Source: Chamaesiphon sp. 336R_metabinner_41 (GTDB taxonomy: Bacteria; Cyanobacteriota; Cyanobacteriia; Cyanobacteriales; Chamaesiphonaceae). From it: a DNA stretch of 46,615 nt. The first letter of the stretch is position 1. Each line of letters starts with the position of its first letter. The notes beneath the pieces were generated by a model. The model was given only the letters and a program-made list of their open reading frames with translations, made no database searches and was not told where the DNA came from. The stretch covers positions 1 through 46,615 of the forward strand of contig JANYDE010000021.1 in the NCBI GenBank assembly GCA_025359915.1, given 5' to 3'. This document shows positions 655-12,213 of the stretch, piece after piece. The translations under genes were made by a program, and so were the position numbers.

Positions 655-945
655 TCAAAGAATTAATGGCTTGTCAAAATCAGTATAACCGTCTATGCCA
701 AAACAGAATAGATGCTCCTCCCTTGGTGTAGGCAATCGATAGACTCGGATACTATCTAGAGTAGGCTCGATCGTCTTTGTCAATCGATCGCGTAGAGTCT
801 CATACTGACTATCACTCACCCGACATTCAAACACCGATAACTGTACTCGTTGCCCATAATCCTTACAGACAGTCGCCACTTTCCGCAACCGCCGCCGCCC
901 TTCTTTCGTTTCCGTATTCACATCATAGGTGACTAAGATATCCAT
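655..945 (-). CDS. cas2: CRISPR-associated endonuclease Cas2
   Basis: Cas2 is the structural partner of Cas1 in the spacer integration complex. The 96-aa protein begins MDILVTYDVNT, with the conserved N-terminal aspartate after the first beta strand (D8), and continues with a basic RRRLRKVA helix and the VQLSVFEC strand typical of the family. The reading frame is open 15 codons further upstream, but that extension overlaps cas1. The ATG at 945, 4 bp after the cas1 stop, gives the normal family length and start. It is the last gene of the cas operon, directly before the leader. Confidence 0.96.
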   Translation of the reverse strand: MDILVTYDVNTETKEGRRRLRKVATVCKDYGQRVQLSVFECRVSDSQYETLRDRLTKTIEPTLDSIRVYRLPTPREEHLFCFGIDGYTDFDKPLIL

Positions 946-949
946 AAGC

Positions 950-1981
950 TTATTTCTGTATAAAAGGTTGATAACTGGGTACGTCGCCACGTAAATGACG
1001 GGCTAATAATCGGGATTGAACGTGGGGAATCAATCCAAATGGAGCTTTTGAATCGATAATTTGATGCTGAACTTCTTCCTGTTTGCGATTTTGATAAGCT
1101 TCTAATAAAGTTCGCCGTGCATCATCGACTAGATGTACCGCCCCACCTGGACGAGTCACAAAATCTTTGGGTTGAATTTGTTTGCGATTGATCAGACTCA
1201 GGACTAATCTATCCGCAAATGGAGCGCGAAATTCTTCCATCAAATCTAGAGCTAGAGCAGGTCTACCAGGGCGCAGAGTATGCAAGAAACCCATTTGGGG
1301 ATCGAGTCCTACGCCTTCACAAGCTGACACACAATCATTTTTTAGTAATGTATAAACGAATGATAATAACGCATTAATTGGATCGCGGGGTGGGCGTTTG
1401 TTTCGATCGAGCAATGCAAACGTTTCCCGATTTGCGCGGATCATGCCTGTAAAGCTGCCAAAATAGGTTTTAGCCGCATAACCTTCGATTCCCCTCAAAG
1501 TATCTAAATCGGGGGCTAGTTCAGCCTTCTGAATCGATTCTGCATGAAGTTTAGCAGTCTTGGTTAGTTGTGCTTTATCTTCTGAATCTTTTGCTTCTCG
1601 TGCGGCTCTCATCACTACAGTGCGGGTATTTTGGAGTTTACCAGCTACCATGTAACGCGCGATCGCTAGAGTAGCCCGAGCATCTCTCACCACCTCATGT
1701 TGAGCATGTCTCAATAATACATTTCCCGTCGTCGAACCCGCCAATCGTCCTTTAAATCGACCAAATTCTGACAACCAGACTAAACTGCGTCCGTCTTCCC
1801 CACAACGATGAATTAAATAGGGACTCATCAGCACATTTCCAAAGGTGACAATACTCCCCAAATGATGGAGCGGAATTTGTTTTTTAACATCCTTTTCAAT
1901 CTCAACTTTGAGCGTTTCATGATCGAGACGCAAATATGCACCTTGAGTTTGGATGTAGAGCGTATTTAGAAGTTGTTTCAT
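950..1981 (-). CDS. cas1: CRISPR-associated integrase Cas1 (type I-C)
   Basis: Cas1 is the metal-dependent integrase that inserts new spacers at the leader end of the array. The 343-aa length is usual for type I-C Cas1. Visible hallmarks are the all-beta N-terminus (LYIQTQGAYLRLD), the helical-domain motif GIEGYAAKTYF with the presumed metal-binding Glu at 166, His234 in GFLHTLRPGRPALALD, and an acidic LMEEFR segment around 246-252. It lies 64 bp downstream of cas4 and 4 bp upstream of cas2, so the three adaptation genes form a compact unit. All expected catalytic residues appear intact, so adaptation should be possible. Confidence 0.97.
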   Translation of the reverse strand: MKQLLNTLYIQTQGAYLRLDHETLKVEIEKDVKKQIPLHHLGSIVTFGNVLMSPYLIHRCGEDGRSLVWLSEFGRFKGRLAGSTTGNVLLRHAQHEVVRDARATLAIARYMVAGKLQNTRTVVMRAAREAKDSEDKAQLTKTAKLHAESIQKAELAPDLDTLRGIEGYAAKTYFGSFTGMIRANRETFALLDRNKRPPRDPINALLSFVYTLLKNDCVSACEGVGLDPQMGFLHTLRPGRPALALDLMEEFRAPFADRLVLSLINRKQIQPKDFVTRPGGAVHLVDDARRTLLEAYQNRKQEEVQHQIIDSKAPFGLIPHVQSRLLARHLRGDVPSYQPFIQK

Positions 1982-2045
1982 GATAATAAATTTAATTGAA
2001 TATATTAAAACCGAACATACACAAACATCCTAGAAATGTTGGGTT

Positions 2046-2684
2046 TCATTCTTCAACCCAACCTACCGTAAAAGGATTATTTCTAAGACTAGATCTGGCA
2101 AAATTGGCGATCGAATCCGGCATACAAGCATCAATCAAAGAACAGTCATCACAACGTTTGTCATTAACAGGTGGTGGTAGTTTTTGACTAATTAAAATCT
2201 CACGAGTAGCGATAATTATCTGTTCGGTTTGGGTGCGTAATTTAGCATCGATTTTTACTTCTCGCCGCCGCTTCGAGCCAGCATGATAAATCGCACCTAA
2301 TGGCACATCACAACCGAGCATTTCCTCCAAACAAAGAGCTTGAGCGCAAAGCTGAATATCGTCAGCGAGTCTTGGTTTTTTACTACCAGACTTGTATTCC
2401 ACTGGATAGGGAATCTCCTCGCGATTAAACTCAACCACATCAGCAATTCCCCGAATCCCCAATCGATGACACCATAGCGGTAAAGCGCGTTCTACCCGCA
2501 CATCATCAAGTTGTTCGTCGTCGGGAATATCGACCTTTTCATGGACTCTTTGCCCCCGCAGCGTGTAGATATTTTCATCCCAAACTTGCTCGATATGAAT
2601 CAACGCAAATTGACGCGGACAATAAGCATAGTGCTGAAGAGCACTAATCATCACATAATCTTCTGAATCTGGCACAATAGGCAC
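2046..2684 (-). CDS. cas4: CRISPR-associated exonuclease Cas4
   Basis: Cas4 trims prespacers and helps select those with a correct PAM. The protein has the PD-(D/E)XK nuclease core with GIADVVEF (Asp82) and PVEYKSG (Glu96, Lys98). It also has the four cysteines expected for an iron-sulfur cluster: Cys22 in YCPRQ, and Cys178, Cys181 and Cys187 in CDDCSLIDAC. The longest start is GTG at 2684; an in-frame GTG at 2675 and an ATG at 2651 are alternatives, but the ATG would remove residues usually seen before the YCPRQ segment. It sits between the Uma2 gene and cas1. Confidence 0.95.
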   Translation of the reverse strand: MPIVPDSEDYVMISALQHYAYCPRQFALIHIEQVWDENIYTLRGQRVHEKVDIPDDEQLDDVRVERALPLWCHRLGIRGIADVVEFNREEIPYPVEYKSGSKKPRLADDIQLCAQALCLEEMLGCDVPLGAIYHAGSKRRREVKIDAKLRTQTEQIIIATREILISQKLPPPVNDKRCDDCSLIDACMPDSIANFARSSLRNNPFTVGWVEE

Positions 2685-2748
2685 AAAAAATAGGTATCTT
2701 TATTTACAGAGTACCCATTTGATGAAGTATATCGATCGCTATTCTGTT

Positions 2749-3324
2749 TTATAATCCAGTTAAAACTTGTTGAGCAGTTAAATTAAATTGACTAAATTGA
2801 GGCGATACGATAATTTGTTCGGCTGTATAAACTTGTTCTTCGTACAATCCTTCCACCAGTTCTAGAATTGTCACCTTATTTAAAATTGGATCGACAATCC
2901 AATATTCAGGAATCTGTCTAGCTGCGTATTCAGATCTTTTATAGCGATAATCTCTTTTTTCTTGTTTGGGACTGACTACTTCCACAACTAAAGTAGGTGG
3001 TGGCATATCTGCCAAAATTGTCGATCGATTAGTTTCGCTCAATTCTAGTTCCAAATCTTCAGAAAGAATTGTTAGATCTGGTATACGTGCAGTTGCTCTA
3101 CCACCCATTACAGAGATTGCAATTTGATTTCTCAATAATTTCGTTGGTATTCCTAATTTTAGAAAGTAAGCTAGTAAAGATATTGAAACTTGCTGATTTT
3201 GATGGCTTTCTGGAGGCATAGGGATGAGTTCTCCATTTACAAGTTCACAAAGAGTATCGTTGCCATCGTCGTAGTTGAGGTATTCCTCAAGGGTCATTAA
3301 CTTAGTCTGAGTTGCAACAACCAT
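2749..3324 (-). CDS. Uma2-family putative restriction-endonuclease-like protein inside the cas operon
   Basis: A 191-aa protein of the Uma2 (DUF820) family, a PD-(D/E)XK-fold group greatly expanded in cyanobacteria whose cellular role is mostly unknown. Seen here are the N-terminal [11 protein letters not shown] and [10 protein letters not shown] segments, an IPDLTIL strand with an acidic residue, VVEVVSP with a core Glu, then YRYKRSEYA and IPEYWIVDP. It lies co-directionally between cas7 and cas4, where type I-C operons normally have nothing, with 64 bp to cas4 and 112 bp to cas7. A 33-bp palindromic repeat lies on its upstream side, which suggests insertion of a mobile cargo gene. A CRISPR function is possible but unsupported by the sequence. 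Confidence 0.9.
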
Positions 3325-3391
3325 AGATTTTAACCTACCTATATTTAGGGATAATCTAACTAATACCTATTTTAATCGATTTCTTCTCCCC

Positions 3392-3424
3392 AGATCCCCG
3401 ACTTCTTTAAGAAGTCGGGGATCT
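3392..3424. repeat. 33-bp palindromic dispersed repeat, copy 1
   Basis: Two perfect 16-bp arms starting AGATCCCCGACTTCTT flank a single T. The element lies 12 bp after the cas7 stop, in the cas7-uma2 gap. A degenerate copy is at 40602-40635 beside mutS. Its position allows a role as intra-operon attenuator or RNA-processing hairpin, but its dispersed nature points to a repeat family. Confidence 0.9.
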
Positions 3425-3436
3425 AGCTCAGATAAT

Positions 3437-4573
3437 TTACTTAACTAAGGAAGTTAAGGTTACACCACTTGGTAGATTATCCTCTTGGATTGTCACAGTA
3501 TAATCAGTAAATTTGCGAGGTACATTTACAGATGATTTCAATTCTGGTTTGATTCGATCGAATAACACATGTGCGGGAGCATTACCGAGCTTATTATCAT
3601 GAGAAAAGATGTGTAAACCCCGCAAAGCCATTAATCCGCGACTGGCAGATCGATCGAGATCCCACATATTCATTAAAGCATCCCAAAATAATTTTAGGTC
3701 TGTTTTATCTACTCCAGTTTGAGCAGCTAAACAAGGGGAATAGAAACCATAGCCCCGATATAAACCGTAGGGGATTAGTGTTTTACGTCCCATTGTTTGC
3801 ATCTTATCTCGATCCTTACCATCGGTGACAGCCATCCGGGTAATTGAAAGATCTTGAGGTTGCACTTCGTCAAGAGAACGGGAGAATGTTAACTGAATTG
3901 GGCCGCGTACTTGCCCCGCATTTAGTCCCGTACTCATCACAGCACCAAACATTCGCACATCGTAAAATTCACCACACATCCAATTTCGTGCTTTATCGAT
4001 ACTTTCACGACTCTTGTTTGCTTTACCTGCTTTTTTAACTAGATCGTCAATGAACTTCTTGAGTGGTTTGTTAGCTTTGAGTTGGTCTTCGATTGATTCT
4101 AATTGTTCATCCAATTCACTTTTGCTCAATTCACCACTATAAGTTAAACTTGTGACCACATCAGTCGCATCTTCAGCATCGCCATCGGTTAAGGTAAATG
4201 ATGGTAATAGATGAATAATATCTTTTAATACTAGCGCGATCGCTGGGTCTTTAACTATATCAGTAGCAGGTTTGCCCATTGACAATTTTTCAGCCACATA
4301 AGCCTTACGAATTTGGTCATTTAATACACCATGATGTTCGACAAAAATCTTCAGACGGGCTGCTTCGGCTTCGCTAGCTTCGTATTGAGCATAGGTAGAA
4401 ATATAGTTGCGAATTTTTCGTTTGAGACAAACATCCGTTACTAATCCGTGCGATGTTTCTGAATCAGTGCGCGGTAAATTTCCGGCATCAGGATCGCCAT
4501 TAGGATTTCCATCAGTGACATCGAATAATAAAACAAAATCGTGACGATATTCGGGGTTTAGATAAGCAGTCAT
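3437..4573 (-). CDS. cas7: Type I-C Cascade backbone subunit Cas7 (Csd2)
   Basis: Cas7 polymerises along the crRNA to form the backbone of the type I-C effector. The family signature is near the N-terminus (FDVTDGNPNGDPDAGNLPR, then DVCLKRKIRNYI), followed by FYDVRMFGAVM and RGPIQLTFSRS. The chosen ATG at 4573 has GGAG 6 nt upstream; a TTG four codons earlier is open but overlaps that site. At 378 aa it is longer than the roughly 290 aa usual for Csd2. The surplus is a charged, probably helical segment between about residues 105 and 195 (LDEQLESIEDQLKANK region). An 81-bp palindromic element separates it from cas8c. Confidence 0.96.
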   Translation of the reverse strand: MTAYLNPEYRHDFVLLFDVTDGNPNGDPDAGNLPRTDSETSHGLVTDVCLKRKIRNYISTYAQYEASEAEAARLKIFVEHHGVLNDQIRKAYVAEKLSMGKPATDIVKDPAIALVLKDIIHLLPSFTLTDGDAEDATDVVTSLTYSGELSKSELDEQLESIEDQLKANKPLKKFIDDLVKKAGKANKSRESIDKARNWMCGEFYDVRMFGAVMSTGLNAGQVRGPIQLTFSRSLDEVQPQDLSITRMAVTDGKDRDKMQTMGRKTLIPYGLYRGYGFYSPCLAAQTGVDKTDLKLFWDALMNMWDLDRSASRGLMALRGLHIFSHDNKLGNAPAHVLFDRIKPELKSSVNVPRKFTDYTVTIQEDNLPSGVTLTSLVK

Positions 4574-4605
4574 AGTATTCTCCAAAAAAGTAATGTATGC
4601 GTGGT

Positions 4606-4686
4606 GTAGGGTGTGTTAGGCGTAGCCGTAATGCACCAAAGCATGGAATATAAAAGGTGCGTTACGCTGTCGCTAACATACCCTAC
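4606..4686. mobile_element. 81-bp palindromic MITE-like element at the cas8c 3' end
   Basis: The left arm begins GTAGGGTGTGTTAG and includes GTAATGCACC. The right arm mirrors it, with GGTGCGTTAC and CTAACATACCCTAC. The arms pair imperfectly around a short AT-rich centre. Elements of this appearance recur in many cyanobacterial genomes. Its right edge overlaps the end of cas8c: the TAG stop of cas8c (4683-4685) lies inside the terminal GTAGGG, so the element supplies the stop codon. Confidence 0.85.
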
Positions 4687-5111
4687 GATGTAGATTTTTT
4701 TGCTGCTTCTGCTCGGTTGTGTGCCCGTTGATGGTAATATCCCAAAGCAAATAACCCTTGTTGGTGCATTTTTAAAGTTTTCGGAAAAGTTCGAGTATGA
4801 GCTTCCAAATTAGGCGGTGCAATTTTGAGTATAATTTCTTGAATTCGGGTATCGATGGCACTGTAAGCACCAACTTTATTTTTCCGAAGTTTAGCTAGAT
4901 GATTAAAAGAATTCTTCACCAGTGCTGGAAAAGCGGTTGCAGGGGTGGTAGAAGCGGCACTATAGTATCTATCCACCAAGGAAGCATTAACTTTGCCGAG
5001 AGCTGCTTTTTGCAATCCTTCCAACTCTGCCAACAGTCGCCCACAGTGGTAAGCTCTATCGTCTTGCTCTTGTAAATTAGGCTGGGGGTTCATTTGTTCC
5101 ATATCAGTCAT
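4683..5111 (-). CDS. cas11c: Predicted internal small subunit Cas11c within cas8c
   Basis: In studied type I-C systems the small subunit Cas11c is translated from an internal start in the 3' part of cas8c. Here three closely spaced in-frame ATGs at 5111, 5102 and 5093 encode MTDMEQMNPQPNLQ, just before the conserved YHCGRLLAELEGLQ helix. They would give proteins of 142, 139 or 136 aa, near the expected size. A GGAA lies 3 nt upstream of the third ATG and no strong ribosome binding site is visible, so the exact start is undecided. This is a prediction from family knowledge; the coding frame is that of Cas8c. Confidence 0.5.
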   Translation of the reverse strand: MTDMEQMNPQPNLQEQDDRAYHCGRLLAELEGLQKAALGKVNASLVDRYYSAASTTPATAFPALVKNSFNHLAKLRKNKVGAYSAIDTRIQEIILKIAPPNLEAHTRTFPKTLKMHQQGLFALGYYHQRAHNRAEAAKKSTS

Positions 5112-6449
5112 CGCATCGGTGCCAAGTTTAGTGGTGAGAGCTAGTTTGATCAGTGCAGCGCGGGGGTATGTGACTTTACCCTCAGCACGATTTCGTTGTA
5201 CGGCTCTGGTGAGTAAATCATCTGGGATGGGTAGATGCTGGAGCGCGTTACGAATTAGCGCAGTCGGGACTTTTGGCAACATCTCTTTAGTCGCATCGCG
5301 GTAAGCACTAGCCGCCAAAGCATATACCCCCAAAGGTTTACCAACCTCCCCATAAGCATCGATAATTTTGTGCGCGAGAAACCATAATTTGAGATTGGCT
5401 TTGACTGTCGGTACAGTGGTTTCCAACCAGTCACGCACAACAGCCCGCGCAACACTGGCGGAAAGTGCGAGAGCATAAAATTGATTAACATCCGTTCCAT
5501 AGACTTCTTGCCCTTGAGCGGCTGAATCTAGCAGATTTTTTACTACTTGAGGATCGGGATGCTCTATCGCACCTAGCAAGTCCATCTCTTCTGGCTCTCG
5601 TGTCCAAAAAACATAGGCTGTATTACCAACTGATAAGCGAGTATTTTTACCAGAAAGCAGATGATTGAGAGCTTTTGTAAACTTCTCAGCAGCTTCACGA
5701 GAAATTGGTGAAGTTAATGAATTTGCTAATCCATAAGAAGTAAAAGCTTGAGCATTTGCAGATACTAATGCCGTACCAGAAGGCTGTCCACCAAATAATC
5801 CTTTCACTAAGAAAGGCAATCGTTGTTCGACAGCTTTTTTCTCGCCAGTGACTAAACAAGTCATGACGTGGCTCTTGATTTTCCCCGATTCAGATTCTTC
5901 ACCGCCAGAAGTATAATTAGCCCAAAACTCCTGAATGCTGATAAAGTTCTCAGCAGCATTTGCCGGAATCTTACCACCTACTCGAAATGTAATATTTTCA
6001 GTAGGATCGAATTTTTTAGCATCTAGTAGCTGTAGAAACTCGCCTCTCGCTTTTTCCAACTCTATGGGAGAATTAAGGAATTTTGCGATCGCAATCATCG
6101 TTAATTCATTAGTCGCTTCTGCACAGGATTGAATCAATATTTTAAATTGCTCGTGACAATCTATCAGCCGATCCGGTTTAGTAGCTGCTCTACCAATTTC
6201 TAAAATATATTCGCTAGTATCTAGCAGTAATTTAGGTTTTACCCCAACAGTCCGACCAATATCAGGAGCAACAATTTCTCGTCCCTTTTTAGTTTCTTTT
6301 TGGCTATGATCTTTCCAGCAAATACTGCCTTCAAATATGCCGTCGGTTGTCAAGCTAATTAACCATGCTACCCGTCGCTGGTTATACATCGCAGGTGGTA
6401 AGTTCTCCATCTGCTGTTCTGCATACTCTTTTAACTTAGTGAGAATCAT
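4683..6449 (-). CDS. cas8c: Type I-C Cascade large subunit Cas8c (Csd1)
   Basis: Cas8c recognises the PAM and starts target unwinding in the type I-C effector. The 588-aa protein begins MILTKLKEYAEQQ and contains Csd1-like segments: AWLISLTTDG, SSG-rich central stretches, NTAYVFWTRE, NQFYALALSASVARAVVRDW, and YHCGRLLAELEGLQ near the C-terminus. Its ATG overlaps the cas5 stop by 4 bp (ATGA), so the two are translationally coupled. The last codons run into an 81-bp palindromic element, which provides the TAG; a few native C-terminal residues may have been lost or replaced. The C-terminal ~140 residues probably also yield Cas11c from an internal start. Confidence 0.95.
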   Translation of the reverse strand: MILTKLKEYAEQQMENLPPAMYNQRRVAWLISLTTDGIFEGSICWKDHSQKETKKGREIVAPDIGRTVGVKPKLLLDTSEYILEIGRAATKPDRLIDCHEQFKILIQSCAEATNELTMIAIAKFLNSPIELEKARGEFLQLLDAKKFDPTENITFRVGGKIPANAAENFISIQEFWANYTSGGEESESGKIKSHVMTCLVTGEKKAVEQRLPFLVKGLFGGQPSGTALVSANAQAFTSYGLANSLTSPISREAAEKFTKALNHLLSGKNTRLSVGNTAYVFWTREPEEMDLLGAIEHPDPQVVKNLLDSAAQGQEVYGTDVNQFYALALSASVARAVVRDWLETTVPTVKANLKLWFLAHKIIDAYGEVGKPLGVYALAASAYRDATKEMLPKVPTALIRNALQHLPIPDDLLTRAVQRNRAEGKVTYPRAALIKLALTTKLGTDAMTDMEQMNPQPNLQEQDDRAYHCGRLLAELEGLQKAALGKVNASLVDRYYSAASTTPATAFPALVKNSFNHLAKLRKNKVGAYSAIDTRIQEIILKIAPPNLEAHTRTFPKTLKMHQQGLFALGYYHQRAHNRAEAAKKSTS

Positions 6450-7144
6450 CGAACTGGCAGCCTCAATTTATTTTTCTCGACTAATACTCCATTTTTTAGT
6501 TCAGCATGAAAGAACTTAGGTTTAGCACTACCACTCGTTACTTGCGATCCGTTTTCATCGTGGGTGAGATAATCGATAGATTGTCCGTCTCCAGATATAA
6601 ATTCAAGATCTAATAACATCAAGCCTAAATCGTCAGTTCGATCGATCGGTTTATCCTCATCTGTCGGCATGTCAAAATATGCACTAAATTCTCGCGTCCC
6701 AAAATAAGGTTGATGATGACATTGACCTTTTTTTACTCGTCGTCGAAACTGATCGCGATATTTAGCGACATCTGCATTAGTATGTTTTTTGAGGTTAATA
6801 TCAGTCTTAATAATATAACCAACATCCCTTAAACAAAGAGTATGACGTTGTGCGCGATCGTCATCAGCAAAATATCGATAATCGGGACTTTTTGCCGAAC
6901 TTGCACTCTGCCAAGTATTTACTTCATTCCTGAGAATAGAGAAGTGTTTAATTGGCTTCAATACTTCGATCGATCGAATCGAATAACTAAACTCTGGTTT
7001 CCAAAAAATCGCTTCCAAAATCCCCCGCGCCGCACTCGGAGTCATCACTTCATAACTAACGCGCTCGGCTCCAAATTCTGGACGAGTAAAGCAAGCAAAA
7101 TCGCCAGTCACTTTGACTGTTAGTGGTGAGTCTCGTTCACCCAT
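6446..7144 (-). CDS. cas5: Type I-C Cas5 (Cas5d), pre-crRNA processing endoribonuclease
   Basis: In type I-C, which lacks Cas6, Cas5d cuts the repeat hairpin at its 3' base and stays bound to the 11-nt 5' handle. The protein starts MGERDSPLTVKVTGDFACF and has the family pattern ...FGAERVSYEVMTPSAARGILEAIFWKP, then RDVGYIIKTDI and a central FGTREFSAYF. I chose the ATG at 7144 because AGGA lies 9 nt upstream; a TTG at 7162 would add six residues and overlap the preceding ORF. Length is 232 aa, normal for Cas5d. It follows the 62-aa ORF by 5 bp and overlaps cas8c by 4 bp. Confidence 0.95.
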   Translation of the reverse strand: MGERDSPLTVKVTGDFACFTRPEFGAERVSYEVMTPSAARGILEAIFWKPEFSYSIRSIEVLKPIKHFSILRNEVNTWQSASSAKSPDYRYFADDDRAQRHTLCLRDVGYIIKTDINLKKHTNADVAKYRDQFRRRVKKGQCHHQPYFGTREFSAYFDMPTDEDKPIDRTDDLGLMLLDLEFISGDGQSIDYLTHDENGSQVTSGSAKPKFFHAELKNGVLVEKNKLRLPVR

Positions 7145-7149
7145 AGGTT

Positions 7150-7338
7150 CTATTCCTGCCAATGTGAGTTACATATAGAGTACCCAGTATTGCAGTAAGG
7201 ATCTACCAAATTTTCCAATTCTTCGATTTTATCTGCTTGGGGCACTACAACTTGATGGATGAGATCTTCGAGCCGTTTGAGATCGTGCTTGAGGATTTCC
7301 ACCTGCTCGACTAGGTACAGCGGGGAGATTTGCGTCAT
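7150..7338 (-). CDS. Small hypothetical protein, first ORF of the cas5-cas2 operon
   Basis: A 62-aa ORF (MTQISPLYLVEQVEILKHD...) that I do not recognise. The first 45 residues are heptad-like, with leucines, isoleucines and many charges, suggesting a short coiled coil; the tail has two cysteines (DPYCNTGYSICNSHW). Its stop lies 5 bp before the chosen cas5 ATG, and the cas5 ribosome binding site falls in its last codons, which fits translational coupling. No good ribosome binding site precedes its own ATG. It is the first reading frame downstream of the predicted crRNA-guided control site. It may be a true accessory protein or just leader sequence. Confidence 0.45.
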   Translation of the reverse strand: MTQISPLYLVEQVEILKHDLKRLEDLIHQVVVPQADKIEELENLVDPYCNTGYSICNSHWQE

Positions 7339-7375
7339 AAATGTTGCTGGAGATTGATTGATAAATCTAATTTAG

Positions 7376-7396
7376 CAGACACAACAATAAATAGAA
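7376..7396 (-). promoter_or_regulatory. Predicted Cascade operator: PAM plus partial protospacer for the crRNA-like RNA
   Basis: On the minus strand a TTC (7396-7394), the usual type I-C PAM, is followed by TATTTATTGTTGTGT (7393-7379). Against the guide of the upstream crRNA-like RNA, positions 1-5, 7-11 and 13-15 are identical and only 6 and 12 differ. Those are the bases that flip out in type I crRNA-target duplexes. Matching stops after position 15, too short for efficient Cas3 recruitment in known systems but enough for binding. The site is 41-55 bp upstream of the 62-aa ORF, where a promoter for the cas5-cas2 operon would be expected. I could not fix a clear -35/-10 pair. Confidence 0.75.
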
Positions 7397-7417
7397 TCAT
7401 AAAAATTAAGTTTTTAG

Positions 7418-7504
7418 GAAGCGGAGCCGATAACCCCGCTTCACCTATATATTACAGAACAAAAAATAGTTCCAATCCTCATCAGCGGCTAATTGCCACT
7501 AATG
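7418..7504 (-). ncRNA. crRNA-like regulatory RNA (CreR/CreA-type) in the cas3-cas5 gap
   Basis: Read on the minus strand: a 5' arm CATTAGTGGC (7504-7495), loop AATTA, and a 3' arm GCCGCTGATG (7489-7480). These make ten pairs, two of them G.U. Next comes AGGATTGGAAC (7479-7469), identical to the 11-nt handle of the array repeats. In all, 15 nt (GATG plus the handle) match the true repeat. The stem sequence differs but the fold is kept. A guide of about 26 nt follows from 7468, beginning TATTTTTTGTTCTGT, then a 9-pair hairpin with arms GAAGCGGGG (7442-7434) and CTCCGCTTC (7426-7418). That hairpin resembles the 3' stem kept on mature type I-C crRNAs. The unit has no second handle. The ends of the transcript are inferred from structure. 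Confidence 0.8.
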
Positions 7505-7649
7505 CTTGAGACTTCTAAGCTTATCATGAGCATTCTCGCATCTGGTATTACTGCGACAACCCGTGGGTACCCATTAAGGGCACCCCTACAGGTTGCCTGT
7601 GTAGCAAGGTAGATTGTTTTAACGATCGAGATCGAACCCAAAATACAGT
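7505..7649 (-). other. Gap between cas3 and the crRNA-like RNA
   Basis: No substantial reading frame. On the minus strand a hairpin GGGTGCCC-TTAAT-GGGTACCC (7585-7565, one G.U pair) follows cas3 by 64 nt and has no T-run after it. An 8-codon ORF (ATG at 7574, stop ending at 7548) overlaps it, with AGGGG about 8 nt upstream. This stretch should contain the promoter of the crRNA-like RNA, unless that RNA is cut from the miaB-cas3 transcript. No promoter is evident. Confidence 0.4.
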
Positions 7650-9899
7650 CTACAGCATTAAATCTGCTGGATCGTAATCGATCGATCTCGCACCAATCCC
7701 AATCCCCTTAACGGGGTGATAAGTACCGCCCCAGACATATAATCCAGGTGCTATTTCAGCACATAGCTCTTTCGCTTGCAGAAACTCATAATTTCGCAGG
7801 CTAACCATATAGGGTTGTAAAAAGCGATAGTCTCCTGCGTTTATATCTCGATAATTAAGCTCCCGTAGGCGTTTTCGCACCTTATCGTCATACTCAATAA
7901 TGACTGAGGTAGTGTCATCACTAATCAATCGAAACTTCTTAGCTACTTCTGGAAAGTCTAACCGCTTGCGTAAATCCTGAATCTGATGAATATCTACGCC
8001 AGGTTGATAGAGACACTGAAAATATTCTTCAAAAATACTAGGATCGTGGAGATTGAGATTTTCTCTTTTTAGTAAGCGGATAGTTTCATCTACTGCTGTT
8101 TGATATTCTCCTTGCGGTACCTTGCCTTCAGCGGGATGAAAAATTACTACTCTACCCAATCCTAGCTTTCCTTCTCGATTGCATCTTCCTGCGGCTTGGA
8201 CGATTCGATCGAGTGGCCCCACGGCACGATATACTGCTGGAAAATCTAGATCTACGCCAGCTTCAACAACTTGAGTAGAAACTAAGATACATGGAAGGTT
8301 ATTTTTCAATCTTGCTTTGACTGTCGCCAAAACTTCCCGCCGATGTTTACCACAGAGTAATGTGGAAAGGTGGAAAATATCTGCTCTGTCGAAATCTTCG
8401 CTATGACTATTTAAAGTATCTAAAACAGCTAAAGTATCTTTGCGAGTATTTAAAACAATTAAAGCTTGATGATGCTGGTGAGTGATTAAATCGTCGATTA
8501 ATTCACTCCACAACCAACCTTGAAGATGTAGCTCATAATTTACTCGCTGAAGACTCTGAAAGTGCTGGATGGCTAAATCTGGAGCGATAATATCGCGGAT
8601 ATTTTTCAATCCTTTCAAATATCCCGTGTCTCCACTGAATGCTGGTTGTGTCGCGGTACAAAGAACTACTGTTACCTGATATCGATCGCATAATTCGCCC
8701 AATACACTTAAAATTGGTGATAGTAAGCCGACGGGCAAAGTCTGAACTTCATCTAAGATAATTACACTCTTAACGATATTATGCAGCTTCCGACATTTGC
8801 TAGGGCGGTTAGCAAATAAACTTTCAAATAACTGCACCGTGGTAGTAACAATTAATGGTGCATCCCAATTTTGAGTAGCTAATCTAGCTTTAGCATACTG
8901 CTGTCTAGCATCATCATTAGTTTCCTCTTGATCGTTTTGATAAAACTGTTCGGTATTAGCCGCACTATGATGTTCTAGTACCGTATTATCACCTAAAATA
9001 TCTCGATAAACATTTACTGTCTGCTCGATGATACTAGTATAAGGTACAGCAATAATCACCCGATCGAGTCCATATTTGAGTGCATGTTTGAGCGCGAAAG
9101 CTAAACCGCTGAGGGTTTTACCGCCGCCAGTCGGTACAGCTAATCGAAATACTCCACCAGGTAATTCAGCCGCATCGGTACAAGCTTGATAAACTTCTCG
9201 CCGAACTTGATTGACTGATGATATCTCGGCTGATTGAATTACTTTTTCTCGATCGATTTTAAGCTTCGTCCATAAATCTGTTAGATCGATTCTCTTACAG
9301 AGAGGCTCCGCCAAAAATTGTTGTCTCTGAATCGTTTGTTCTGGTTTAAAATGCTCTTCAGTATCTAAGTAATCTGCATCGACTAAACAAGAAAATAATA
9401 ATCGAGTTAATAGATCGTAGCTGTAACAATCTGTAAGTAAACTTCGTACTAAAGGATTAAAATCTTCATCGATCTGCAATTTTCCTAATTCTTGCTCGGC
9501 ATTAGCACAAGCAACTTTATAATCTTCTTCATGCTTTGGATCGTCAAACTTACTCTTAAGTGTCGCCTTTGCTGGTAGTCCAGCATGATGCCCATAAATT
9601 AACAAAGCTAGAGGAGTTAGTTTGTATAAGTCCCAAGCAAGTTTAGCTCCATGAATAGCATGTGGAACTTTTTTGATATACGAACCAGTTCCACTATGGC
9701 ACTCGTCTAAATACGTCTGAAAATTAGGATTATACTTACCTAAGTCATGCCATAAGCCTGCGTAGTAACCTAATTTCCCTACCTTAAACTTATCGGCAAA
9801 TTTCTCAGTTAAATTAGCAACGTCACCCAAATGCTGCTTGAGTTTGTGCCATTGATCATCACCTTTGCCTGGAGTGTGAGCATTAAACTTATATTTCAT
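7650..9899 (-). CDS. cas3: CRISPR-associated helicase-nuclease Cas3 (HD domain fused)
   Basis: Cas3 degrades DNA bound by the type I-C effector. The 749-aa protein has an N-terminal HD nuclease domain (His23, HDLGK at 51-55, GHHAGLP at 103-109). An SF2 helicase follows: PTGGGKT at 256-262 (Walker A), DEVQ at 383-386, LCTATQP, and QVVEAGVDLD with QAAGRCNREG (motifs V and VI). All key residues look intact. It begins 10 bp after the miaB stop and may be co-transcribed with it. It is separated from the other cas genes by a 311-bp gap, so the interference nuclease may be expressed independently of the effector and adaptation genes. Confidence 0.97.
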   Translation of the reverse strand: MKYKFNAHTPGKGDDQWHKLKQHLGDVANLTEKFADKFKVGKLGYYAGLWHDLGKYNPNFQTYLDECHSGTGSYIKKVPHAIHGAKLAWDLYKLTPLALLIYGHHAGLPAKATLKSKFDDPKHEEDYKVACANAEQELGKLQIDEDFNPLVRSLLTDCYSYDLLTRLLFSCLVDADYLDTEEHFKPEQTIQRQQFLAEPLCKRIDLTDLWTKLKIDREKVIQSAEISSVNQVRREVYQACTDAAELPGGVFRLAVPTGGGKTLSGLAFALKHALKYGLDRVIIAVPYTSIIEQTVNVYRDILGDNTVLEHHSAANTEQFYQNDQEETNDDARQQYAKARLATQNWDAPLIVTTTVQLFESLFANRPSKCRKLHNIVKSVIILDEVQTLPVGLLSPILSVLGELCDRYQVTVVLCTATQPAFSGDTGYLKGLKNIRDIIAPDLAIQHFQSLQRVNYELHLQGWLWSELIDDLITHQHHQALIVLNTRKDTLAVLDTLNSHSEDFDRADIFHLSTLLCGKHRREVLATVKARLKNNLPCILVSTQVVEAGVDLDFPAVYRAVGPLDRIVQAAGRCNREGKLGLGRVVIFHPAEGKVPQGEYQTAVDETIRLLKRENLNLHDPSIFEEYFQCLYQPGVDIHQIQDLRKRLDFPEVAKKFRLISDDTTSVIIEYDDKVRKRLRELNYRDINAGDYRFLQPYMVSLRNYEFLQAKELCAEIAPGLYVWGGTYHPVKGIGIGARSIDYDPADLML

Positions 9900-11424: not shown

Positions 11425-12213
11425 ATGAGACAATACTGGCAAAAATTGATAATTTTATTAGTTGCGCTGGGTGTGACAATTGCGCAGCCTGGATGGAGCG
11501 ACTCGCCACCAGTTCGGGATCCAGTCTTTTCTGAAGCTTTTTGTTTGAAAATATTTGGCGAAGTTGCAGAAAAGGCGAGGTCTAGCAGTTGGCAGATCTC
11601 CGATCGTGATCGACATATATTAACTCAATGCCGTACCAAATTTCCACCTACCGCAAATTCCCAAATTCCGCTCCCAACAGCCGATGAATGTGTCTATGTC
11701 GTCAAAACTCTGGTAGAAGGTGGTTTGAGTAAGGTCAAAGAAATAGAATTGCCAGAAGAACAGGTAAGATCGATCGAACGCTGCGATGAGGTGATCAAAT
11801 ATTATTCGCTATCATCCGAAAATATGTTGCCGACATTAAAATCTAGCGATAAGATTGTTGTCGATCGAACTATCTATCAAACTCAAGTACCACAGCGGGG
11901 AGATATTTTGGCATTAAATTCTCCCCATCCTACTCAGTCAGATCAATACCCAGAACTCTTAACCCGCAGAGCCATTGGATTACCGCGTGAAAGAATTAAG
12001 ATTGAGCAGGGAATTGTGTATATTAACGGCAAATTGTACAAGGAAAATTATGTTACTCAAGCTGTTGACTTCAATAAATCTATTTCTGTACCTGAGAATA
12101 AGTATCTAGTCTTAGATGACAATCGGACTAGCTCGACAACTAAATCCAGTTGGAGTCTCGTTTCCCGCGAAGCAATCGTCGGTAAAGTTGTTTGGCATTT
12201 TGGGAGTAAGTAG
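11425..12213 (+). CDS. Signal peptidase I homologue lacking the catalytic Ser/Lys dyad
   Basis: A 262-aa protein with an N-terminal hydrophobic segment (KLIILLVALGVTIA, about 7-20), then about 110 residues of unassigned sequence with four cysteines, then a C-terminal S26/LepB-type domain. Conserved boxes are recognisable: SSENMLPTLKSSDKIVVDR, RGDILAL, TRRAIGLPRERIKI, LDDNRTSS and AIVGKVVW. Where active enzymes have S-G-S-M-x-P the sequence has S-E-N-M-L-P, so the nucleophilic Ser is Asn133 (codon 11821-11823). The general-base Lys of KRVIGLP is Arg181 (codon 11965-11967). It should therefore not cleave signal peptides by the known mechanism. It may bind signal peptides or serve as a periplasmic scaffold. 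It is divergent from miaB. Confidence 0.88.
   Translation: MRQYWQKLIILLVALGVTIAQPGWSDSPPVRDPVFSEAFCLKIFGEVAEKARSSSWQISDRDRHILTQCRTKFPPTANSQIPLPTADECVYVVKTLVEGGLSKVKEIELPEEQVRSIERCDEVIKYYSLSSENMLPTLKSSDKIVVDRTIYQTQVPQRGDILALNSPHPTQSDQYPELLTRRAIGLPRERIKIEQGIVYINGKLYKENYVTQAVDFNKSISVPENKYLVLDDNRTSSTTKSSWSLVSREAIVGKVVWHFGSK

What the first reader, a model, noticed from the sequence alone, without database searches (positions are those of the whole stretch)
11425..12213. Signal peptidase I fold with both catalytic residues replaced
The nucleophile position holds Asn133 and the Lys position Arg181, while boxes C to E remain well conserved. A retained fold with an erased dyad points to a non-proteolytic role, such as binding signal peptides, or to regulation of the active peptidase. 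The N-terminal 110 residues with four cysteines are not part of ordinary LepB.
Basis: partly seen in the sequence, partly recalled or inferred. Interest (0 to 1): 0.65.

Follow-up and report, generated by a model that had tools for sequence, protein, structure and literature searches.

The report
Signal-peptidase lookalike without catalytic residues
A cyanobacterium carries an apparently exported protein that keeps the fold of the enzyme that trims signal peptides but has lost both catalytic residues; it is maintained by selection in several related species, so it probably binds something rather than cuts it.

Summary
The 262-aa ORF at 11425-12213 (+) has a type I signal peptidase (S26) domain at residues 123-257, with Asn133 at the nucleophile position and Arg181 at the lysine position. 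The genome (Chamaesiphon, by kinship) has three other S26 genes with Ser/Lys intact. Asn is found in 4 of 9 Chamaesiphon genomes; the Lys position is Arg or Gln. These four are one clade (100/100) nested in a small family that shares an N-terminal domain with conserved cysteines and matches no known family. Other members have Ser/Lys (two Chamaesiphon) or Ala/Lys (three Leptolyngbya-like genomes). Codon tests reject neutral drift in both domains for every Asn-type pair tested, so it is not a decayed copy; the N-domain is the more constrained part in the three pairs where both were measured. The S26 model matches SipA, a known dyad-less pilus factor, as well as it matches active enzymes. Best reading: a non-proteolytic exported adaptor in which the S26 fold is a peptide-binding scaffold and the cysteine domain carries conserved function. 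Loss of catalysis is well supported; the binding role is inferred. New variant of a known kind.

The parts
11425..12213 (+). Asn-type S26 pseudo-signal-peptidase, 262 aa, complete ORF
11446..11490 (+). hydrophobic segment, residues 8-22 (signal peptide or membrane anchor)
   Evidence: Kyte-Doolittle mean 2.3 over 15 residues; no 15-residue stretch starting beyond residue 35 exceeds 0.91; export is inferred
11521..11790 (+). N-terminal cysteine domain, residues 33-122, helical in the model
   Evidence: no known family; found only in this gene family; helices 37-51, 60-72, 86-99, 101-106, 111-117
11542..11544 (+). Cys40 codon
   Evidence: invariant in 6 of 6 proteins with both Cys pairs
11629..11631 (+). 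Cys69 codon
   Evidence: invariant in 6 of 6
11689..11691 (+). Cys89 codon
   Evidence: invariant in 6 of 6
11782..11784 (+). Cys120 codon
   Evidence: invariant in 6 of 6
11791..12195 (+). S26 (signal peptidase I) domain, residues 123-257
   Evidence: structural matches to SipA, SpsB and E. coli LepB
11821..11823 (+). Asn133 at the nucleophile (Ser) position, box B
11965..11967 (+). Arg181 at the general-base (Lys) position, box D
12109..12165 (+). eroded box E (around LDDNRTSSTTKSSWSLV)

Best explanation
It is an exported pseudoprotease. An N-terminal hydrophobic segment takes it out of the cytoplasm (inferred). A roughly 90-residue helical domain with two conserved Cys pairs, probably disulfide-stapled outside the cytoplasm (inferred), is its most constrained part (shown for three species pairs). 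A type I signal peptidase domain follows whose nucleophile and general base are both gone (shown) and whose fold is retained (predicted model). It cannot cut by the S26 mechanism, yet both domains are under purifying selection (shown). The most likely working is SipA-like: the S26 domain is a peptide-binding or protein-docking scaffold for exported proteins, and the cysteine domain contacts a partner (inferred).
For: Dyad positions N/R in a gap-free alignment. Asn-type is one clade, support 100/100, inside a cysteine-domain family of 8 rows that is one side of a branch against 26 other S26 rows, 96/95.6. Asn in 4 of 4 clade members, Lys position R/R/Q/Q. Codon-model test against omega=1: 2dlnL 35.4-87.6 for the S26 part in 6 of 6 Asn-type pairs and 66.3-74.0 for the N-domain in the 3 pairs that can be tested. 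N-domain identity 75-85% against 54-57% for the S26 part. Four Cys invariant in 6 of 6. Three S26 genes in the own genome keep Ser/Lys, so the housekeeping job is covered. Structural matches: SipA 4n31_B Z 13.4, rmsd 2.4 A over 123 residues, tied with SpsB 4wvi_A Z 12.8, rmsd 2.9 A over 127. SipA itself is reported to lack the dyad, to show no detectable peptidase activity and to be essential for pilus polymerisation (PMC4049620, passages).
Against: No binding, localisation or expression data. The S26 part evolves much faster than canonical S26 orthologues of the genus (54-57% between Asn-type pairs, against 85% for one canonical pair, the own C115 copy L004 against L094), which also fits relaxed constraint. 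dS is near or at saturation, and three of six S26 omega estimates are unusable. One of the four Asn copies (G393) lacks the signal segment and the first Cys pair. No Asn-type gene was found in 5 of 9 Chamaesiphon genomes; four of those five are draft assemblies. Peptide-cleft residues were not mapped one by one.
Confidence: 0.55

Rival explanations
1. A duplicate under decay: a copy of the Ser/Lys family member moved to a new locus, lost catalysis and is on its way out.
For: Very long stem branch of the Asn clade (1.19 changes per column). Fast S26 divergence, eroded box E and patchy presence (4 of 9 genomes). G393 copy truncated at the N-terminus. The Ser-type locus itself is a deletion remnant in G391, so loss happens in this family.
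Against: Neutrality is rejected in every pair and domain tested. ORFs are intact in G000, G390 and G391, and Asn is kept in 4 of 4. The N-domain is 75-85% identical. Flanks are kept: miaB in 3 genomes, hmpF in 3.
Confidence: 0.22
2. A regulator or decoy of the active LepB: it binds signal peptides or LepB without cutting.
For: Same fold and three intact S26 genes in the same genome.
Against: No evidence of contact. In G388 a Ser/Lys family member lies about 1.9 kb from a canonical lepB, but no second S26 gene lies on the window's contig.
Confidence: 0.12
3. A helper of type IV pilus or surface-protein assembly, the cyanobacterial counterpart of what SipA does.
For: Next gene downstream is hmpF, the pilus motility taxis protein (NF038350, 482.3 bits against a 200 cut-off), followed by response-regulator-, MCP- and CheA-like genes and one that no model matched. 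The Asn-type gene is next to hmpF in 3 of 3 genomes where the junction is visible (G000, G390, G393); G391 is unresolved at contig ends.
Against: hmpF is convergent, so there is no shared transcript. The hmpF loci of the other 7 genomes have no such gene in the flanks fetched. The Ser-type members sit next to carA instead.
Confidence: 0.1
4. Still a protease, with other catalytic residues.
For: Asn is strictly kept. Ser244 is the only Ser invariant among the four Asn-type S26 domains and is Gly in the Ser-type relative.
Against: Ser244 lies in the eroded box E. Ser131 (the box B serine two residues before the nucleophile) is Leu in G393. No invariant Cys or His in the S26 part. In SipA, changes of the residue at the nucleophile position to Ala or Ser had no effect on function (PMC4049620, passages).
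Confidence: 0.06

Closest known systems
SipA (LepA) of Streptococcus pyogenes, pilus assembly factor
   Same: Signal peptidase I fold with both dyad positions replaced (Asp48/Gly85, PMC4049620, passages); non-proteolytic; among the best structural matches
   Different: Different residues at the dyad, about 20% identity, no cysteine domain in the solved chain; SipA lies in a pilus gene cluster, this gene between miaB and hmpF
SpsA of Staphylococcus
   Same: Second S26 copy lacking two conserved catalytic residues beside an active enzyme in the same genome (PMC12445088, passages)
   Different: No N-terminal cysteine domain is described in the passages seen; its sequence was not compared here
Canonical cyanobacterial LepB (three copies in this genome)
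   Same: S26 fold, boxes B to D recognisable
   Different: LepB keeps Ser/Lys and box E and the own copies have no Cys before box B
Ser/Lys members of the same cysteine-domain family (L072 of G388, L074 of G389)
   Same: Same hydrophobic start, same four Cys, S26 domain
   Different: Dyad intact and, where the sequence reaches it (L072), box E too; different locus (next to carA)

Membership tests
Type I signal peptidase (S26, active enzyme) | S26 domain above the curated cut-off | tested here: met
   PF10502 83.2 bits against 22.9; TIGR02227 88.7 against 47
Type I signal peptidase (S26, active enzyme) | Ser nucleophile and Lys general base | tested here: not met
   N133 and R181
Type I signal peptidase (S26, active enzyme) | Box E, as GDNRNNS.DS in the intact copies | tested here: not met
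   DDNRTSSTTKSSW
Type I signal peptidase (S26, active enzyme) | Fold | tested here: met
   E. coli LepB 3s04_A Z 11.6 over 128 residues, SpsB 4wvi_A Z 12.8 over 127; predicted model, mean pLDDT 70
Type I signal peptidase (S26, active enzyme) | Cleaves signal peptides | not testable with these tools
   needs an assay
SipA-like pseudo-signal-peptidase | S26 fold without the dyad | tested here: met
SipA-like pseudo-signal-peptidase | Locus with sortase and pilin genes | tested here: not met
   Immediate neighbours are miaB and hmpF; none of the 11 window ORFs scanned was named a sortase or pilin, but not every window ORF was scanned
SipA-like pseudo-signal-peptidase | Conserved peptide-binding cleft | not tested
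   cleft residues were not mapped one by one
SipA-like pseudo-signal-peptidase | Non-proteolytic function | not testable with these tools
   needs an assay

The most novel reading that the evidence does not exclude
An exported cysteine-domain plus S26 architecture in cyanobacteria whose function does not need catalysis: the nucleophile has been lost more than once (Ala in Leptolyngbya-like members, Asn in Chamaesiphon) while the architecture persists, and in the Asn lineage the new N-terminal domain, not the peptidase, is the part selection guards. It would be a peptide-sensing or assembly adaptor of the cyanobacterial envelope, possibly tied to pilus motility by its hmpF neighbourhood.
Probability: 0.25. 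Interest if true: 0.65.

Novelty: new variant of a known kind. Interest (0 to 1): 0.45.

Why it matters
Standard models name this gene 'signal peptidase I' well above their cut-offs, so the loss of catalysis goes unseen in annotation. A family that still has Ser/Lys, Ala/Lys and Asn/Arg-or-Gln members side by side is a natural experiment on how a protease becomes a binding protein, and it makes the open question of what dead signal peptidases do testable in free-living cyanobacteria.

Tried and rejected
Internal repeat: I suspected that the two Cys pairs (C40/C69, C89/C120) are a duplicated module. Profile comparison gave P 0.17, so I do not claim it.

Known fold for the N-domain: Pfam (best E 0.11 in 5 pieces), PDB sequences (best E 1) and Foldseek with a separate model (no match at E <= 0.001, best 3.0) gave nothing. 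That model is weak (pLDDT 68.2, pTM 0.38), so the fold is undetermined, not shown to be new.

N-domain elsewhere: in 388 genomes of the class, convincing matches only in G000 and G322; four further rows at E 0.001-0.009 were read as chance.

Shifted dyad: rejected by the gap-free alignment and the list of invariant residues.

Nucleophile survey: among 128 distinct S26 cores in the loci held at that point, 115 Ser/Lys, 8 Ala/Lys, 1 Thr/Lys, 2 Asn/Arg, 2 Asn/Gln. The sample is biased, as most loci came as best matches to this family. A DNA pattern for Ala in box B matched 8 of 358 genomes, 10 places; on reading, 7 places in 6 genomes look like S26, one (L219) is a 61-aa frame without other boxes and two (L212, L220) gave no frame. 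The Ser pattern matched 251 of 358; it also accepts a few non-Ser codons and misses many real genes. Eight of the 388 genomes had no match at its threshold.

Codon methods: YN00 failed with a math error for several pairs, so I used NG86, ML and a pairwise codon model of my own. Three of six S26 omega estimates ran to saturation; only the test against omega=1 is used for them.

Tree: 34 rows chosen by hand from the loci, not all. One row meant for it (L213) was not picked up by the script. The root drawn is the midpoint, so the order of Ser and Ala states inside the family is not fixed; the minimum is 5 state changes over all 34 rows.

Literature: no paper in the library holds 'Chamaesiphon' with 'signal peptidase' (0 papers) or the four terms (0 papers). 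One search listed 2 papers and one search listed 10 of 75; I read none of those. One search listed 9 papers and one search listed 3. I read passages only of PMC4049620, PMC12445088 and PMC12984324.

Full report
What is there. The ORF at 11425-12213 (+) encodes 262 residues. Residues 123-257 are an S26 domain (PF10502 E 2.7e-23; TIGR02227 88.7 bits against a cut-off of 47). In the alignment with Ser/Lys relatives the nucleophile column holds Asn133 and the general-base column Arg181, with no gap near either. Box E reads DDNRTSSTTKSSW where an intact copy reads GDNRNNSYDSHYW, so the erosion goes beyond the dyad. The protein has four cysteines, 40, 69, 89 and 120, and one strongly hydrophobic stretch at residues 8-22, about 100 residues before box B.

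The genome. The window is G000:C102. The Pfam family rings four times in the genome: two adjacent genes on C35, one on C115 and this one. The other three keep Ser, Lys and box E. Relatives of the same genus are named Chamaesiphon in the public contigs, matched to the unnamed handles by equal contig lengths (12847, 58913, 8898 and 6861 bases). That G388 is Chamaesiphon minutus PCC 6605 is recalled from its size and comes from no call.

Relatives. In the family of the window (11 genomes: 9 of the genus, 2 of another genus) the architecture occurs in two forms. Asn form: G000 (N/R), G390 (N/R), G391 (N/Q) and G393 (N/Q; first Cys pair and signal segment missing). Ser/Lys form: G388, and G389 (cut by a contig end). 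G391 also holds a remnant of the Ser-form locus with the middle part, boxes B and C included, deleted. A scan of genome contigs kept 80 loci of 161 relatives; among these I saw no further member with the cysteine domain (records near the window's own genome may be left out by that tool).

Two loci. The Asn gene lies beside miaB in G000, G391 and G393 and beside hmpF in G000, G390 and G393. The Ser gene lies beside carA in G388 and G389, and the remnant of G391 lies near carA too, with one ORF between. No family member lies within the flanks fetched at the carA locus of G000 and G392-G397 (G390 gave no carA match), nor at the miaB locus of G388-G390, G392 and G394-G397 (flanks up to 1.5 kb). 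So the Asn form is a separate copy at its own place, not the Ser gene caught in decay.

Selection. Between Asn copies the N-domain (residues 24-122) is 75-85% identical and the S26 part (123-262) 54-57% for the three pairs with both parts. For comparison, miaB is 94-97% identical between G000 and the other three, so the gene evolves fast. A pairwise codon model rejects omega=1 for the S26 part in 6 of 6 Asn pairs (2dlnL 35.4-87.6) and for the N-domain in 3 of 3 (66.3-74.0), with omega 0.07-0.10 for the N-domain and 0.15-0.23 for the three S26 pairs that were not saturated. Against a simple inversion story: the Ser pair G388/G389 also shows a slightly better conserved N-domain (85% against 76%; omega 0.17 against 0.23), so the contrast is a matter of degree.

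Tree. With 34 S26 domains the four Asn copies are one clade (100/100) on a long stem (1.19), sister to the Ser copy of G388 (99/95); all eight members with the cysteine N-domain are one side of a branch (96/95.6). Since a Ser/Lys member sits between Ala and Asn members, either the nucleophile was lost more than once or it was regained; repeated loss is the simpler biology, but the midpoint root leaves it open.

Structure. AlphaFold2 with nine family sequences gave mean pLDDT 70.0, pTM 0.60: helices at 37-51, 60-72, 86-99, 101-106 and 111-117, then the S26 strands. Foldseek and VIA-align match the S26 part (about 122-262) to SipA 4n31_B (Z 13.4, rmsd 2.4, 123 residues), SpsB 4wvi_A (Z 12.8, 2.9, 127) and E. 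coli LepB 3s04_A (Z 11.6, 2.8, 128); the first two are tied. Cys40/Cys69 and Cys89/Cys120 lie near the outer ends of successive helices, which would suit two disulfides in an exported protein; I had no coordinates, so this is inference.

Precedent. SipA of S. pyogenes has Asp48 and Gly85 at the dyad, no detectable peptidase activity, an almost entirely conserved peptide-binding cleft, and is needed for pilus polymerisation; mutating the residue at the nucleophile position had no effect (PMC4049620, passages). Staphylococcal SpsA lacks two conserved catalytic residues and is dispensable (PMC12445088, passages). An Arg at the base position is described in the 186 repressor CI of the related LexA family (PMC12984324, passages). 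A dead signal peptidase is therefore a known kind; the Asn clade, its cysteine domain and its cyanobacterial setting are the new variant.

How it most likely works. Shown: loss of both catalytic residues, retention of a detectable S26 domain, a clade of four, purifying selection. Predicted: fold. Inferred: export, disulfides, peptide or protein binding by the S26 cleft, partner contact by the N-domain. The hmpF neighbourhood is a lead towards pilus biology, weakened by convergent orientation and by its absence in the seven other genomes.

Verdict. The feature is real and under selection, of limited taxonomic reach, and belongs to a known kind.

Noticed in passing
window 658-9899 and L098 2508-12164: A type I-C CRISPR-Cas locus next to miaB. 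Between the window and G391 the effector genes differ strongly (cas3 50%, cas8c 40%, cas5 62%, cas7 69% identical over 212 aa) while the genes matching window 658-990, 953-1981 and 2049-2684 (which look like cas2, cas1 and cas4; names recalled), a 191-aa gene and miaB are 93-97% identical: it looks like an exchange of the effector module alone.
   Followed up: partly
L029, L075, L076, L177, L203 (Ala) and L150 (Thr): S26 proteins with a long membrane-spanning N-terminal part of two similar blocks that have Ala or Thr at the nucleophile but keep Lys.
   Followed up: partly
L213: An S26-like protein with Ala at the nucleophile and a lipoprotein-like start ending in LTAC.
   Followed up: no
L011 and L012, 953-1315: In both Leptolyngbya-like genomes a 120-aa gene resembling glyoxalase/VOC proteins (recalled resemblance) overlaps the start of the Ala-type S26 gene by 4 bases, so they are probably cotranscribed.
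   Followed up: no
L102 8125-8629 (G391): Remnant of the Ser-type gene with an internal deletion near carA, in a genome that has an Asn-type copy elsewhere.
   Followed up: yes
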